From: a virus
Length of the DNA stretch: 64,000 nt
Virus record (IMG/VR): IMGVR_UViG_3300033144_003431
Span: 1 to 64,000 of that record
Strand: one strand, 5' to 3'
Shown here piece after piece: positions 1,952-5,868 of this stretch. A model generated the notes under the pieces. That model had not been told where the DNA came from. It worked only from the letters and a program-made list of their open reading frames with translations, and did not search any database. The stretch's first letter is position 1, and each line of letters begins with the position of its first letter. A program made the translations under genes and the position numbers.

Positions 1952-2026
1952 AGGGAATTAGTGTAATCGGCAGCACGCTGGCTTCATAAGCCAGAGTTAT
2001 GGGTTCGAGTCCCGTATTCCCAACCA
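1952..2026 (+). tRNA. tRNA-Met (CAT), first base pair unpaired
   Basis: Full cloverleaf with encoded CCA. The anticodon stem CTGGC/GCCAG encloses TTCATAA (anticodon CAT). D-stem is GTGT/GCAC with GG in the loop; T-loop is TTCGAGT. With the usual spacing, position 1 is A and position 72 is A, so the 1:72 pair is absent, a feature of initiator tRNAs. The D-stem T11-A24 pair is elongator-like, and only two of the three G-C pairs typical of initiators are in the standard orientation. Decoding as initiator, elongator or modified Ile-CAU cannot be settled by eye. Confidence 0.9.
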
Positions 2027-2032
2027 ACACAT

Positions 2033-2110
2033 GCACCCGTGGCCTAACTGGACCAGGGCTCCCGACTACGAATCGGGCGATTGTAGGTTCGAATCCTACC
2101 GGGTGTACCA
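2033..2110 (+). tRNA. tRNA-Arg (ACG)
   Basis: Acceptor GCACCCG pairs with CGGGTGT, then A73 and encoded CCA. Anticodon loop CTACGAA gives ACG; T-loop is TTCGAAT. It ends 9 bases before the ATG of the DNA ligase gene. Confidence 0.93.
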
Positions 2111-2119
2111 TACAATACT

Positions 2120-3253
2120 ATGAATAACATCAAACTCCCCATCCTTTACCATCAGGCCAAAGGCGGCGACTTACGACAGTGGCAAGTTTGGACTGATGGT
2201 AAATACATCGTCACCGAATACGGCCAAGTAGGTGGAAAGCTTCAACAAAGCCAAAAAGCCGCCGAAGGAAAGAACCTCGGCAGAGCAAACGCCACTAGTC
2301 CAGCCGAACAGGCTGAGCTAGAGGCCAAGTCCTTGTGGAATTACAAGGTGGAAAGGAAGTATAGTGAGACGCCAGAAGGTGCCAAAGAGACTTTACCGCT
2401 TCCCATGTTAGCTCATAGCTTTAAGGGCACGAAAAAGAAGAAGTTTATCTACCCGGCCCATTCGCAACCTAAGCTGGATGGTGTGCGTTGTTTGGCTGCT
2501 CGCGATGAAACAGGTGAGATTACATTGACCTCGCGACAAGGAAAGCCTTGGCATCTACCGATCATTGCGGCTCAATTGGATACTTGGTTGCCGGATGACA
2601 TGATGCTAGATGGCGAGGTTTACATTCACGGAATGTCGTGTCAAAAGATTACGTCATTGGCAAGGTCTGCTAATCCCGATGGTAAATCCTACAAGGAAGC
2701 GAGTGCGGAACTGGTCTACCATGTTTATGACATGCCCGTGTTCGACGGGTGCGAGATTCTGACGTGGGAGGAACGTGCCATTGCACTCTACGGCACGCGT
2801 GGACTGACTGAAAGCGAGTCGGTTCACAGTGTCCAGGTGGATAGCGTCAAGAACGAAGCTGACCTGTGGGCCATGCACGGTAAGTACATTAGCGAAGGCT
2901 ACGAAGGTGCAATCCTGAGGGGTTTGCAAGGTCAATACCTTTGGGGATATCGCTCCGCTGATCTCTTGAAAGTGAAGCAGTTCCAAGATGCAGAATTTCA
3001 AGTGCTCGATGCCCGAGACGGCAAAGGTAAAATGAAAGGATGCGTAGTATTTATCTGTCGAAATGACTTGACAGATGCCACTTTCGAGTGTACAATGAAG
3101 GTGACGATGGACGAACGTCGTCGCATGTATGAACAACGAGACCAGTACATTGGTCAACAGCTAACAGTACGGTTCTTTGATCGTACTGACGATCAGATCC
3201 CTCGGTTCCCGGTAGGTATTGTCTTCCGAGATACGATTGATCTGCCGAAATAA
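2120..3253 (+). CDS. ATP-dependent DNA ligase with N-terminal WGR-like domain
   Basis: A 377-aa ligase that would seal nicks in phage DNA using ATP. Residues about 5-80 resemble a WGR domain (RQWQVWTDGKYIVTEYGQVGG), a nucleic-acid-binding module. The adenylation domain follows: motif I QPKLDGVR with nucleophile Lys near 118, motif III-like MLDGEVYIHG, motif IV EGYEGAILRG and motif V LLKVKQF, then a C-terminal OB-like region. The LDG form of motif I and the ordering favour DNA ligase over the two RNA ligases elsewhere in the window. The ATG is 9 bases after the tRNA-Arg CCA with no Shine-Dalgarno, so tRNA processing would leave a near-leaderless message. Confidence 0.92.
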   Translation: MNNIKLPILYHQAKGGDLRQWQVWTDGKYIVTEYGQVGGKLQQSQKAAEGKNLGRANATSPAEQAELEAKSLWNYKVERKYSETPEGAKETLPLPMLAHSFKGTKKKKFIYPAHSQPKLDGVRCLAARDETGEITLTSRQGKPWHLPIIAAQLDTWLPDDMMLDGEVYIHGMSCQKITSLARSANPDGKSYKEASAELVYHVYDMPVFDGCEILTWEERAIALYGTRGLTESESVHSVQVDSVKNEADLWAMHGKYISEGYEGAILRGLQGQYLWGYRSADLLKVKQFQDAEFQVLDARDGKGKMKGCVVFICRNDLTDATFECTMKVTMDERRRMYEQRDQYIGQQLTVRFFDRTDDQIPRFPVGIVFRDTIDLPK

Positions 3254-3254
3254 T

Positions 3255-3329
3255 CCCGCTCTGGTGTAGAAGTCTGCACATCGGTTTGAAAAGCCGAAGG
3301 TTTAGGAGCATTACCTAGGGGCGGGGCCA
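3255..3329 (+). tRNA. tRNA-Phe (GAA) with atypical D and T loops
   Basis: Acceptor CCCGCTC/GGGCGGG, G73 and encoded CCA. Anticodon stem TCGGT/GCCGA with loop TTGAAAA (GAA). The D-loop (AGAAGTCT) lacks the conserved GG and the T-loop is AGCATTA instead of TTCRANY, so the usual D-loop/T-loop contact is lost on both sides. Stems remain paired, which argues against simple decay. Confidence 0.8.
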
Positions 3330-3334
3330 TACAT

Positions 3335-3408
3335 AGGTCGCTGATGTAACAGTAACATCACGGATTCCAAACCCGTGGATCGGGGTGCGATTCCTCGGTG
3401 GCCTGCCA
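3335..3408 (+). tRNA. tRNA-Trp (CCA) with atypical D loop
   Basis: Acceptor AGGTCGC/GTGGCCT with A1-T72 and discriminator G73, as in bacterial tRNA-Trp, plus encoded CCA. Anticodon loop TTCCAAA gives CCA; the closing pair 31:39 is A.C. D-loop AACAGTA has no GG. T-loop TGCGATT departs from TTC. It ends 5 bases before the ATG of the HNH gene. Confidence 0.83.
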
Positions 3409-3413
3409 ATACA

Positions 3414-3854
3414 ATGCCGTATAAAAACAAACAACAACAAAGAGAATATCAAAAGCTATGGTTGGCCAAAAGGCGTCAGTTGTGGTTTAGTGAGAACGGC
3501 CCTTGTGTTGTTTGTGATAGTAGAGAAGAACTACAGTTAGATCATGTTGATCCAGCCACGAAGATAGAACATAGAGTTTGGTCGTGGTCTCAGAAAAGAC
3601 GTGAAAAAGAACTAGCAAAATGTAGAGTACTCTGTAAAGACTGTCATCAGGAAAAATCAAAAACCGAAGCTGAAAAGGGTGAAGATCGTTATAGTGCTAA
3701 ATTATCTGAACAAGACGTTATTGCTATTAGATTAGAATATCAAAAGGGCGTTTACGGCAAAGGATACAGAGCATTGGGTAAAAAGTACAAAGTTGACCGC
3801 AAAGTGATTGACAGAATTATTAATGGTACAATTTGGAAACATGTGGTGAGTTGA
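3414..3854 (+). CDS. HNH homing endonuclease with C-terminal HTH-like segment
   Basis: A 146-aa free-standing HNH nuclease. Core: CVVC near residue 31, QLDHVDP (HNH His), then CRVLCKDCHQEKSK. The C-terminus (SEQDVIAIRLEYQKG, GKKYKVDRKVIDRIING) resembles a NUMOD or helix-turn-helix DNA-binding tail. The ATG at 3414 is used; an upstream in-frame GTG lies inside tRNA-Trp. The gene sits between two tRNAs, and its last 10 bases, including the stop, are the 5' end of tRNA-Asp. It probably spreads by cutting the empty tRNA junction; this target is inferred. Confidence 0.87.
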   Translation: MPYKNKQQQREYQKLWLAKRRQLWFSENGPCVVCDSREELQLDHVDPATKIEHRVWSWSQKRREKELAKCRVLCKDCHQEKSKTEAEKGEDRYSAKLSEQDVIAIRLEYQKGVYGKGYRALGKKYKVDRKVIDRIINGTIWKHVVS

Positions 3855-3922
3855 TCTAGTCAGGTCTAAGATACCTCCCTGTCACGGAGGCTACACGGGT
3901 TCAAATCCCGTACTCACCGCCA
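3845..3922 (+). tRNA. tRNA-Asp (GTC)
   Basis: Acceptor GGTGAGT/ACTCACC, G73, encoded CCA. Anticodon stem CCTCC/GGAGG with loop CTGTCAC (GTC). D-loop contains GG; T-loop TTCAAAT. The first 10 bases overlap the HNH coding sequence, including its stop codon. Confidence 0.94.
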
Positions 3923-3928
3923 TACAAC

Positions 3929-4004
3929 GCCCGTATGACAGAATGGCAAATGTGCTAGCCTGCAAAGCTAAGCTTCGTGAGTTCGATTCTCACTACGGGC
4001 TCCA
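3929..4004 (+). tRNA. tRNA-Cys (GCA)
   Basis: Acceptor GCCCGTA/TACGGGC with T73, the cysteine discriminator, and encoded CCA. Anticodon loop CTGCAAA gives GCA; T-loop TTCGATT. The outermost anticodon-stem pair (27:43) is mismatched C.A. Confidence 0.92.
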
Positions 4005-4005
4005 T

Positions 4006-4095
4006 GGTAAGTTGGCAGAGTGGTCTATTGCAGCGGCTTGCTAAGCCGTAGAGTCCTTCGGGGCTCCGTGGGTTCAAATCCCACACTTACCTCCA
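4006..4095 (+). tRNA. tRNA-Ser (GCT)
   Basis: Acceptor GGTAAGT/ACTTACC with encoded CCA. Anticodon stem GCGGC/GCCGT around TTGCTAA (GCT). Class II tRNA with a long variable arm closing on a TTCG tetraloop. T-loop TTCAAAT. Confidence 0.94.
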
Positions 4096-4103
4096 AATAA
4101 AAC

Positions 4104-4131
4104 TTGACAAGCACGAAAATCGTGCTATACT
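4104..4131 (+). promoter_or_regulatory. Leaderless-type promoter with palindromic spacer
   Basis: TTGACA at 4104-4109, 16-base spacer, TATACT at 4126-4131, then exactly six bases to the ATG at 4137. The spacer is almost filled by a perfect 7-bp inverted repeat (AGCACGA, AAA, TCGTGCT; 4110-4126) whose last base is the first base of the -10. A repressor bound here would block RNA polymerase, so this is a candidate operator. Confidence 0.75.
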
Positions 4132-4136
4132 TGAGT

Positions 4137-4598
4137 ATGAACGAAATTTCCTCTCATCAGGCAACTCTCATTCACGACATTGCTTCTTACAAGGAAGTGA
4201 TGGGAGCTAAGCGTTTCAAGCGTACTAAGGAAGAAATGGCGATGGGACTGACTGCTGAAAAAGCGTTGGAACTACGCCTAAGGGAAGCCAACGATCTTCC
4301 GGCTGGTGCTGTTGGTAGTCGCCCCACGCCGCGAGCATCTACGTCACGAAAGGGCGATATTACGATCAAGATTCGTCCTGCTGCTGGCGTTGAGTCTAGT
4401 TATTTCGAACGACTCCCAAATGGGCCTGTTGAAATAGTTCTTGACGAGAAATTTTATTCGTGGCTTGACAATAAGCTAGAATGCCCGTATAATGGAGACA
4501 GTACAATGATACTTCGACACATCCTCAATCTGGGGATCGGAGAGGTCATCACACAAGTCAACTCAGAACAAGACGTACAAGAATACGACACTCAATAG
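4137..4598 (+). CDS. Unrecognised 153-aa protein, leaderless start
   Basis: Start chosen at the ATG six bases after a TATACT -10; an upstream in-frame TTG is itself the -35 element and cannot be in the transcript. The N-terminal 45 residues look helical and charged, residues about 60-85 are basic and low-complexity (RPTPRASTSRKG), and the C-terminal half (DITIKIRP, VEIVLDEKFYSWLDNKLECP) alternates strands and helices. No motif recognised. The palindrome in its promoter hints at a regulated, perhaps early, gene. Confidence 0.75.
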   Translation: MNEISSHQATLIHDIASYKEVMGAKRFKRTKEEMAMGLTAEKALELRLREANDLPAGAVGSRPTPRASTSRKGDITIKIRPAAGVESSYFERLPNGPVEIVLDEKFYSWLDNKLECPYNGDSTMILRHILNLGIGEVITQVNSEQDVQEYDTQ

Positions 4599-4604
4599 AA
4601 CAAT

Positions 4605-4690
4605 GGAGGGTACCGTGCAAGGCACAAACAGGTTTTGAACACCTGGGGAGTTGTGAAAGGCTCGGGGAGCGTTACCTCTACCCTCCGCCA
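4605..4690 (+). tRNA. tRNA-Ser (TGA), strongly atypical D and T arms
   Basis: Acceptor GGAGGGT/ACCCTCC with G73 and encoded CCA. Perfect anticodon stem CAGGT/ACCTG around TTTGAAC (TGA). A longer variable arm is possible. The D arm is GTGC-AAG-GCAC with only a three-base loop, the T-stem contains a mismatch, and the T-loop is AGCGTTA. The acceptor and anticodon stems are intact. Whether it is charged is uncertain. Confidence 0.68.
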
Positions 4691-4707
4691 GACAACAGAA
4701 AAAGAAA

Positions 4708-4785
4708 CCGAGGGTAGCCAAGTCTGGTAAAGGCAGCGGCCTGATAAGCCGCGATGCGAAGGTTCAAATCCTTCCCTTCGGACCA
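4708..4785 (+). tRNA. tRNA-Ile (GAT)
   Basis: Acceptor CCGAGGG/CCTTCGG, A73, encoded CCA. Anticodon stem GCGGC/GCCGC with loop CTGATAA (GAT). T-arm GAAGG-TTCAAAT-CCTTC is canonical, and the D-loop contains GG. Confidence 0.92.
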
Positions 4786-4812
4786 ATCACGCTCTCTGAG
4801 CAAGGCGAAACT

Positions 4813-5136
4813 ATGAATCCCGACGATATTTACGACTATAAGTATGGACTAGGACAAAAGCAGAATTTTGACCTTGAATACAGGCTTGATCTAGAGGCCA
4901 TGCAGAAGCTCATGGACTCAATTGGTGGCTGGCACGGCGAGACACGCACAAAAGAGCGTCAGCAAAAAGAGAAGCAAGAACGTATGGTTCCTCTTGTAGC
5001 CAAAATGGGTAAGAACTTCGTGCCAGACCTTGGCGACAATAATATCATCGGACACTGGAAATCAGAACCGAAAACTCCTAACTATCGTCGCCGCTGGGTC
5101 GGTGGCAAGTATATTTGGGAGACAGTCGAAGAATAG
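4813..5136 (+). CDS. Unrecognised 107-aa charged protein
   Basis: A hydrophilic protein with an acidic N-terminus (MNPDDIYDYKYGLG), a highly charged Lys/Glu/Gln helix around residues 45-60 (TKERQQKEKQERM) and a basic-aromatic C-terminus (NYRRRWVGGKYIWETVEE). No family recognised. It lies between tRNA-Ile and tRNA-Lys, and its stop codon is immediately followed by the first base of tRNA-Lys. No strong Shine-Dalgarno is seen. Confidence 0.7.
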   Translation: MNPDDIYDYKYGLGQKQNFDLEYRLDLEAMQKLMDSIGGWHGETRTKERQQKEKQERMVPLVAKMGKNFVPDLGDNNIIGHWKSEPKTPNYRRRWVGGKYIWETVEE

Positions 5137-5212
5137 CGGTCCTTGGTGTAATTGGCAACATAGCAGACTCTTAATCTGTCAGATCTGGGATCATACCCCA
5201 GGGGATCGACCA
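5137..5212 (+). tRNA. tRNA-Lys (CTT)
   Basis: Acceptor CGGTCCT/GGGATCG, A73, encoded CCA. Anticodon loop CTCTTAA gives CTT. D-loop has GG. The T-loop ATCATAC departs from the usual TTCRANY at positions 54 and 58. It starts directly after the stop codon of the preceding gene. Confidence 0.88.
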
Positions 5213-5219
5213 AACACAT

Positions 5220-5295
5220 GCTCCTGTGATGTAATGGACTAGCATATTAGTCTTCTAAACTAATCGTCCAGGTTCGAGTCCTGGCAGGAGTACCA
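5220..5295 (+). tRNA. tRNA-Arg (TCT)
   Basis: Acceptor GCTCCTG/CAGGAGT, A73, encoded CCA. Anticodon stem TTAGT/ACTAA with loop CTTCTAA (TCT, reads AGA/AGG). T-loop TTCGAGT. Confidence 0.93.
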
Positions 5296-5302
5296 AATAA
5301 CT

Positions 5303-5512
5303 ATGAAATATAAAACTAAAGATAATCTAATAACGTTGGGCCTTGCAATATTATTAATACTTTCTATCATTGTTGTTATTGGCATAATTATGGATGCTGG
5401 AAAAGACTCAGTTCGTCAAGAAGCAGTAGATAATGGACACGCCACCTGGGTTGTAAAAGAAGGATCCAAATTTACTAGTTTTGAGTGGAATAACTTGACA
5501 CACGAGCAATAA
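5303..5512 (+). CDS. Small single-pass membrane protein
   Basis: A 69-aa protein with a basic N-terminus (MKYKTKDN), one hydrophobic segment at about residues 9-31 (ITLGLAILLILSIIVVIGIIM) and a charged C-terminal tail. Topology and function are unknown. The ATG is 7 bases after the tRNA-Arg CCA, with no Shine-Dalgarno. The end of the gene contains the -35 of the next promoter. Confidence 0.75.
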   Translation: MKYKTKDNLITLGLAILLILSIIVVIGIIMDAGKDSVRQEAVDNGHATWVVKEGSKFTSFEWNNLTHEQ

Positions 5513-5522
5513 CGAGTATAAT
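5495..5522 (+). promoter_or_regulatory. Leaderless-type promoter
   Basis: TTGACA 5495-5500, 16-base spacer, TATAAT 5517-5522, six bases, then ATG at 5529. The predicted transcription start coincides with the start codon. Confidence 0.75.
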
Positions 5523-5528
5523 GTAACC

Positions 5529-5684
5529 ATGAACGAACAAACCGACACCGACAACGTGACTATCACTCGTGCAGAACACGAACAACTCCTAGAAGACCAG
5601 CAGTTCCTTCGAGCACTACAAGCCGCTGGTGTTGACAACTGGGAAGGGTATTCAGAAGCCCAAGAAATTCTAGAAGACGAATAA
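5529..5684 (+). CDS. Small acidic protein, 51 aa, leaderless
   Basis: Sequence MNEQTDTDNVTITRAEHEQL, then a helical acidic region ending ILEDE. It is very acidic and probably two helices. No family recognised; small acidic early phage proteins often bind or inhibit host proteins, but nothing here proves that. Support for it being a gene comes from the perfect promoter placed six bases upstream and its clean termination before the tRNA-like hairpin. Confidence 0.65.
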   Translation: MNEQTDTDNVTITRAEHEQLLEDQQFLRALQAAGVDNWEGYSEAQEILEDE

Positions 5685-5688
5685 TACA

Positions 5689-5780
5689 CTCTCTCCGACA
5701 ATTTGTAAACCAATAGATAATATCAATGGTTAACGAACGTTGAGGATCCCACAGAAATCTTTTTCTGTCGGAGAGAGCCA
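5689..5780 (+). ncRNA. tRNA-like hairpin RNA ending in CCA
   Basis: A perfect 12-bp inverted repeat (CTCTCTCCGACA at 5689-5700, TGTCGGAGAGAG at 5766-5777) encloses 65 bases and is followed by CCA, within an array of CCA-ending tRNAs and one base before tRNA-Leu. Inside, TCAATG/CGTTGA can close a nine-base loop. It does not fold as a standard tRNA because the end helix is too long. It may be a diverged tRNA, a tRNA mimic or a processing hairpin. Confidence 0.5.
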
Positions 5781-5781
5781 T

Positions 5782-5868
5782 GCGGGAATGGCGTAATTGG
5801 TAGCCGCACGAGATTTAGGATCTCGTATCCGAAAGGATGTGGGGGTTCGAGTCCCCCTTCCCGTACCA
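5782..5868 (+). tRNA. tRNA-Leu (TAG)
   Basis: Acceptor GCGGGAA/TTCCCGT, A73, encoded CCA. Anticodon stem CGAGA/TCTCG with loop TTTAGGA (TAG). Long variable arm with GAAA loop; T-loop TTCGAGT. Confidence 0.94.

What the first reader, a model, noticed from the sequence alone, without database searches (positions are those of the whole stretch)
3255..4690. Three tRNAs that lost both the D-loop GG and the T-loop TTC
tRNA-Phe (T-loop AGCATTA), tRNA-Trp (TGCGATT) and tRNA-Ser TGA (AGCGTTA, three-base D-loop) lack the conserved elbow contact on both sides while acceptor and anticodon stems stay largely paired. Phe and Ser share the AGC(A/G)TTA loop. Concerted loss suggests a relaxed tRNA architecture, like mitochondrial tRNAs, not random decay.
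Basis: seen in the sequence. Interest (0 to 1): 0.6.

Follow-up and report, generated by a model that had tools for sequence, protein, structure and literature searches.

The report
Phage tRNAs with a rewired elbow
Three odd tRNA genes in this phage have not lost the contact that folds every tRNA into an L; they use a different, matched pair of bases for it, and the same swap recurs in hundreds of virus tRNAs and a few bacterial ones, which shows that a contact thought almost invariant can be re-coded.

Summary
The three tRNAs are real and their loops read as described, but "lost on both sides" is wrong. Each keeps G19 and C56. Only the second elbow pair changed: G18-U55 became A18-G55. Relatives of this phage carry orthologues with the canonical pair (Ser D-loop AGG with TTC, against AAG with AGC here).

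Tested blind on public sequence, A18 and G55 nearly always occur together. Of tRNAs chosen only for an A18G19 D-arm, 54 of 57 (viral) and 44 of 47 (bacterial genomes) have G55C56. D-arms with G18A19 have U56 in 76 of 81, so 19-56 also covaries. Among 310 re-wired tRNAs not chosen by pattern, 287 are matched (permuted mean 183, maximum 206 of 10,000).

The swap is compatible with function: one ~1-Mb bacterial genome has it in its only tRNA-His and only tRNA-Cys found. Some virus-borne arrays are almost wholly of this type.

T54-G55-C56-R57-A58 fits the published UGNRA triloop, in which an outside A contacts the G; I infer A18 plays that part. This is a compensated alternative elbow, not mitochondria-like relaxation or decay. 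I found no report of A18-G55 in tRNA in the papers I could search. Why phages favour it is open.

The parts
3255..3329 (+). tRNA-Phe(GAA), A18/G55 elbow; D-loop AGAAGTCT 3268-3275 (A18 3271, G19 3272), T-loop AGCATTA 3307-3313, encoded CCA; discriminator G73 rather than the usual A73
   Evidence: G002 orthologue has the same D-loop and T-loop GGCAGTA with two compensatory stem changes
3335..3408 (+). tRNA-Trp(CCA), A18/G55 elbow; D-loop AACAGTA 3348-3354, T-loop TGCGATT 3386-3392, encoded CCA
   Evidence: G001 orthologue is canonical (AGTGGTA / TTCGATT)
4605..4690 (+). tRNA-Ser(TGA), minimal 3-nt D-loop AAG 4619-4621, T-loop AGCGTTA 4668-4674, long variable arm, encoded CCA; missed by ARAGORN and Rfam
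   Evidence: G002 orthologue AGG / TTCGATT with three compensatory stem changes
5137..5212 (+). tRNA-Lys(CTT): T-loop ATCATAC 5190-5196, 54-58 swapped to A:T but G18G19 and U55C56 kept; G003 orthologue has TTCAAAT
1952..5868 (+). phage tRNA cluster (12 tRNAs found) interleaved with an ATP-dependent DNA ligase gene (2120-3253) and small ORFs

Best explanation
The three genes encode tRNAs with a compensated alternative elbow. The outer pair G19-C56 is kept (shown in sequence). The inner pair G18-U(psi)55 is replaced by A18-G55 (shown as covariation). Inferred mechanism: T-loop residues 54-58 become an X-G-C-R-X lone-pair triloop, and A18 from the D-loop enters it and contacts G55, as in the composite GNRA arrangement described for UGNRA triloops; C56 in the N position stays free to pair with G19. 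The closing pair 54-58 can then be U-A, A-U or G-G, and non-U54 usually goes with A60. The L-shape would be preserved and the tRNAs would serve translation of phage genes in the ordinary way. Position 55 cannot be pseudouridylated because it is G; G18 (the Gm18 target) is absent in all three, and U54 is absent in Phe and Ser though still present in Trp. Why phages carry the swap (drift tolerated in spare tRNAs, or selection to differ from host tRNAs) is not settled.
For: Orthologue series in the phage's relatives switch both positions together: Ser, Arg, Phe, Trp, Gly, Ile, Tyr. Tests chosen on one loop and blind to the other: T-loop TGC to D-loop AG, all 12 real tRNAs on inspection; D-loop A18G19 to G55C56, 44 of 47 bacterial and 54 of 57 viral; D-loop G18A19 to U56, 76 of 81; D-loop G18U19 to A56, 10 of 13. 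1,219 tRNAs not matching any search pattern: GG/TC 884, AG/GC 211, AG/TC 3, GG/GC 5; matched fits 287 of 310 against permuted mean 183, maximum 206 of 10,000. 54-58 among A18/G55 viral tRNAs: T:A 22, G:G 16, A:T 15. Stems of the window's genes carry compensatory changes against relatives. A ~1-Mb Levybacteria genome with 41 tRNAs, one per anticodon, uses the swap in its only tRNA-His, only tRNA-Cys and a tRNA-Gly. UGNRA triloop with U-A closing pair and an outside A contacting the G: PMC2258182.
Against: No structure, probing, expression or charging data. The triloop geometry is by analogy. About 4% of A18G19 D-arm tRNAs keep U55 (4 of 104). The phage Phe has G73, unusual for bacterial PheRS, so not every copy need be charged well. 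The scanner and its score threshold are my own and the loci come from pattern hits, so percentages are not population frequencies. Related tRNAs share ancestry, so the permutation numbers overstate independence, although the swap occurs in nearly all isoacceptor families.
Confidence: 0.85

Rival explanations
1. Relaxed, mitochondria-like tRNAs that have given up the D/T-loop contact.
For: GG and TTC are absent; the Ser D-loop is only 3 nt.
Against: G19 and C56 are kept in all three; 18 and 55 covary in hundreds of tRNAs. Loss of contact would leave the two loops uncorrelated.
Confidence: 0.04
2. Decaying pseudogenes or assembly errors.
For: Low covariance-model scores; Ser is missed by ARAGORN and Rfam; Phe G73; recombination between tRNA T-arms does make a dead chimera in the relative G003.
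Against: Complete stems and encoded CCA, compensatory changes in orthologues, the same form in single-copy bacterial tRNAs.
Confidence: 0.08
3. Selected disguise: the re-wired elbow lets phage or mobile-element tRNAs escape host nucleases, toxins or modification enzymes that recognise the canonical elbow, extending the known evasion by anticodon-loop changes. This adds a reason to the best explanation and does not compete with its structure.
For: Whole arrays are re-wired (L529 16/16, L417 at least 17 of 19); in one Verrucomicrobiales genome 25 of 25 dispersed tRNAs scanned are canonical while a tRNA array is almost all re-wired; phage tRNAs are known to escape tRNA-cutting defences (PMC10264068, PMC11555353).
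Against: No elbow-directed nuclease identified in any host here; the window phage re-wired only 3 of 12; single-copy chromosomal tRNAs have it too.
Confidence: 0.25
4. Non-translational tRNAs, like the staphylococcal cell-wall tRNA-Gly that have UGC in place of T-psi-C (from memory).
For: Shared T-loop U54 G55 C56 (Trp).
Against: As I remember them, those lack the D-loop GG in another way; here nearly all isoacceptor families are involved and G19 is kept.
Confidence: 0.03
5. Loop diversification selected to reduce recombination between neighbouring tRNA genes, whose T-arms are the longest shared stretch.
For: G003 has lost about 2 kb by a fusion inside the T-arms of Arg-ACG and Ser-GCT relative to the window.
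Against: Does not explain why the D-loop changes with it.
Confidence: 0.07

Closest known systems
Canonical tRNA elbow (G18-psi55, G19-C56, T54-A58)
   Same: Cloverleaf, G19-C56, R57, 7-nt T-loop
   Different: A18-G55 in place of G18-psi55; 54-58 may be A-U or G-G. Reviews describe psi55 as universally conserved (PMC4810234, PMC7912444)
UGNRA lone-pair triloop / T-loop motif of riboswitches (PMC2258182)
   Same: U54 G55 C56 R57 A58 fits UGNRA; an outside A contacts the G
   Different: There it is an element of other RNAs; use as a tRNA elbow is inferred here, and the A54 and G54 forms fall outside the consensus
Eukaryotic tRNA-Ala with A54/A58 and R15/A48 (PMC7566577)
   Same: Tertiary T-loop pair replaced, with a concerted second change
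   Different: Other positions; 18-55 and 19-56 not reported as changed in the part read; its abstract says these unusual pairs are not seen in bacterial or archaeal tRNAs
Type II mitochondrial tRNAs (PMC7609411)
   Same: No GG and no TTC
   Different: They lack the D/T-loop contact; these keep a matched one
Phage tRNAs that evade tRNA-targeting defence (PMC10264068)
   Same: Phage tRNAs altered relative to host tRNAs
   Different: There the anticodon loop is altered; that paper does not mention D-loop, T-loop or elbow

Membership tests
tRNA (RF00005) | Covariance score above the curated cut-off | tested here: met
   Phe 40.1, Trp 39.2 against 29; Ser-TGA not met, accepted on orthology, stems and CCA
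tRNA (RF00005) | Acceptor, D, anticodon and T stems, U33, CCA end | tested here: met
Canonical tRNA elbow | G18-U55 | tested here: not met
   A18-G55 in all three
Canonical tRNA elbow | G19-C56 | tested here: met
   both bases present in all three
Mitochondrial type II tRNA | No D/T-loop contact | tested here: not met
   covariation of 18-55 and 19-56
UGNRA lone-pair triloop | U-G-N-R-A sequence | tested here: inconclusive
   met by Trp (TGCGA); not by Phe (AGCAT) or Ser (AGCGT)
UGNRA lone-pair triloop | Outside A contacts the G | not testable with these tools
   supported by A18-G55 covariation only
Non-proteinogenic tRNA-Gly | Gly isoacceptor used in cell-wall synthesis, with UGC T-loop | tested here: not met
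   the three here are Phe, Trp and Ser isoacceptors; other features recalled from memory and not tested

The most novel reading that the evidence does not exclude
Viruses and mobile elements maintain whole tRNA sets on one or more re-coded elbows (A18-G55, A19-U56, U19-A56) that stay usable on the host ribosome but are not substrates for host enzymes or defence nucleases keyed to the canonical elbow, making a second tRNA pool that is structurally set apart inside the cell.
Probability: 0.25. Interest if true: 0.9.

Novelty: new variant of a known kind. Interest (0 to 1): 0.75.

Why it matters
The elbow is bound by the ribosome, RNase P, T-boxes, TruB and many other factors, and its bases are treated as invariant. 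Natural, matched replacements give ready-made swaps for asking which factors read base identity and which read shape, show that psi55 is dispensable in some working tRNAs, and point to tRNAs that standard finders score low or miss (Ser-TGA here). They also offer scaffolds for tRNAs set apart from host tRNAs.

Tried and rejected
My first T-arm scan had one base too many before CCA and returned odd or bulged T-arms; replaced. Most hits of the corrected T-arm scan are tmRNA acceptor domains, which also carry TGC, and were left out. Three BLAST searches of cultured-phage records gave only scattered single-tRNA matches, which were not checked for the swap. The RNA-ligase query found no relatives. 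A literature search for A18 with G55 gave nothing, nor did 'purine trap'; Steinberg-laboratory selections on D/T-loop bases, which I recall as relevant, are not held in the library, so priority cannot be excluded. The idea that AGCRTTA is a shared repeat or integration element was rejected: in the window it is only slightly above chance (23 against 14.8 expected).

Full report
What is there. The window lies in a 77,335-base virus record. Its cluster at 1952-5868 holds 12 tRNAs: ARAGORN finds 11 and the twelfth, Ser-TGA at 4605-4690, was found with a structural scanner that gives no weight to GG or TTC. Phe and Trp pass the Rfam tRNA cut-off with reduced scores; Ser does not register at all.

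In standard numbering the three T-loops are A54 G55 C56 A57 U58 (Phe), U54 G55 C56 G57 A58 (Trp) and A54 G55 C56 G57 U58 (Ser). C56 is present in each, and the D-loops AGAAGTCT, AACAGTA and AAG each contain an A-G dinucleotide where G18-G19 should be. So G19 and C56 remain and the inner pair has gone from G18-U55 to A18-G55. The register of the D-loop is a choice in Phe; in Trp (AACAGTA against the orthologue AGTGGTA) and Ser (AAG against AGG) it is nearly forced.

Relatives. Ligase and ORF searches gave four related viral records (G003 and G004 come from near-identical phages). Orthologues switch both positions together: Ser AAG/AGCGTTA here, AGG/TTCGATT in G002; Arg AACTGGACCA/TTCGAAT here, AACAGACCA/TGCAATT in G002; Phe A18/G55 here and in G002, AGACGGTAA/CTCGAAA in G001; Trp A18/G55 here, canonical in G001; Gly and Ile-TAT A18/G55 in G002, canonical in G001; Tyr A18/G55 in G003, canonical in G001 and G002. 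Between the window and G002 the Phe stems show two compensatory double changes and no broken pair, and Ser shows three (T-stem left out because of a length difference). Phe also changes 54 and 58 together, from A/U to G/G.

Blind tests. Viral tRNAs picked by a TGC T-arm: 12 cloverleaf tRNAs (two of them identical), all with A-G in the D-loop at a position that can be 18-19; three of these also hold a GG elsewhere in the loop, so their register is read by eye. The remaining hits are mostly tmRNA ends. Bacterial genomes picked by an A18G19 D-arm: 47 distinct tRNAs, 44 with G55C56. Viral contigs picked the same way: 54 of 57. A G18A19 D-arm predicts U56 in 76 of 81 and a G18U19 D-arm predicts A56 in 10 of 13. 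In 1,219 distinct tRNAs on the same loci that do not match the search patterns, the table is GG/TC 884, AG/GC 211, GA/TT 27, GT/TA 8, GG/CC 18, with the mismatched cells small; 287 of 310 re-wired tRNAs fit allowed pairs, against a permuted mean of 183 and maximum of 206 in 10,000 shuffles. The allowed 18-55 pairs were set after seeing the first 274 tRNAs, so the D-arm-selected scans, which came later, are the cleaner test. Shared ancestry inflates the numbers, but the swap occurs in nearly all isoacceptor families.

Function. A Levybacteria genome of about 1 Mb yields 41 tRNAs, each anticodon once, and its only His, only Cys and its GCC-Gly tRNAs are A18/G55. Since His and Cys each depend on one tRNA there, the elbow must be serviceable, provided the assembly is near complete. 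In a Verrucomicrobiales genome 25 of 25 dispersed tRNAs scanned are canonical, while a tRNA array on one contig is almost wholly A18/G55. Viral loci L529 (16 of 16) and L417 (17 of 19) are similar. From established knowledge, the window's Trp keeps A1-U72, G2-C71, G3-C70, G73 and CCA, the main bacterial TrpRS elements, and Ser keeps G73 and the long arm; Phe has G73, which may weaken charging.

Mechanism (inferred). [quoted passage not shown] U54-G55-C56-R57-A58 fits this, A18 supplies the outside A, and C56 sits in the N position, free to pair with G19. The G54-G58 and A54-U58 forms would be variants of the closing pair; non-U54 usually goes with A60. Shown: the covariation and the kept G19/C56. 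Inferred: the geometry, the preserved L-shape, the use in translation of phage genes.

Why phages have it. Two readings remain. Spare phage tRNAs may tolerate the intermediate and drift; or the swap may be selected because it sets phage tRNAs apart from host tRNAs. The wholly re-wired arrays beside a canonical chromosomal set favour the second; the mixed set in the window phage (3 of 12) and the single-copy bacterial cases do not require it. No elbow-directed nuclease was found or sought here.

Novelty. The reviews I could read treat G18-psi55 and psi55 as universal and a search for A18 with G55 gave nothing. Older selection experiments are not in the library, so the chemistry may have been seen in the laboratory; its natural, widespread use I have not found reported.

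Limits.

Noticed in passing
L041:17124-17200 (G003) and L037:9234-9304 (G001): Related odd tRNAs with apparent 8-nt anticodon loops (TATTTACA, AATACTCA), the same D-stem GTCT/GGAC and G55 T-loops; possible quadruplet-decoding tRNAs.
   Followed up: no
L004:12018-12095, compared with window 2033-4095: Chimeric Arg-ACG/Ser-GCT tRNA made by a deletion of about 2 kb between two T-arms; removes the ligase, Phe, Trp, Asp and Cys genes.
   Followed up: partly
L043, L048, L052, L057, L058, L069, L071, L072: tRNA-like genes in viral contigs with a TGC T-loop and, in most, D-loop AAAAGTA, with an enlarged, variable middle domain in place of a normal anticodon arm; the T-stem seems to carry a one-base bulge.
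   Followed up: no
Nostoc and other cyanobacterial contigs L196, L197, L216, L227, L242, L243, L250, L271, L273, L286: A family of A18/G55 tRNAs with acceptor TACATAC or close to it but many different anticodons.
   Followed up: no
L202, L229, L240: Verrucomicrobial tRNA-Thr(TGT) with a 4-nt D-loop (ACAA or ATAA) in tRNA arrays.
   Followed up: no
L062:7698-7768: tRNA-Gly with both elbow pairs changed: D-loop AAAATTA and T-loop GGAAGTA, readable as A18-G55 plus U19-A56.
   Followed up: no
L004:6020-6092: Degenerate tRNA-like sequence with D-loop AATTAAA and an odd T-arm.
   Followed up: no
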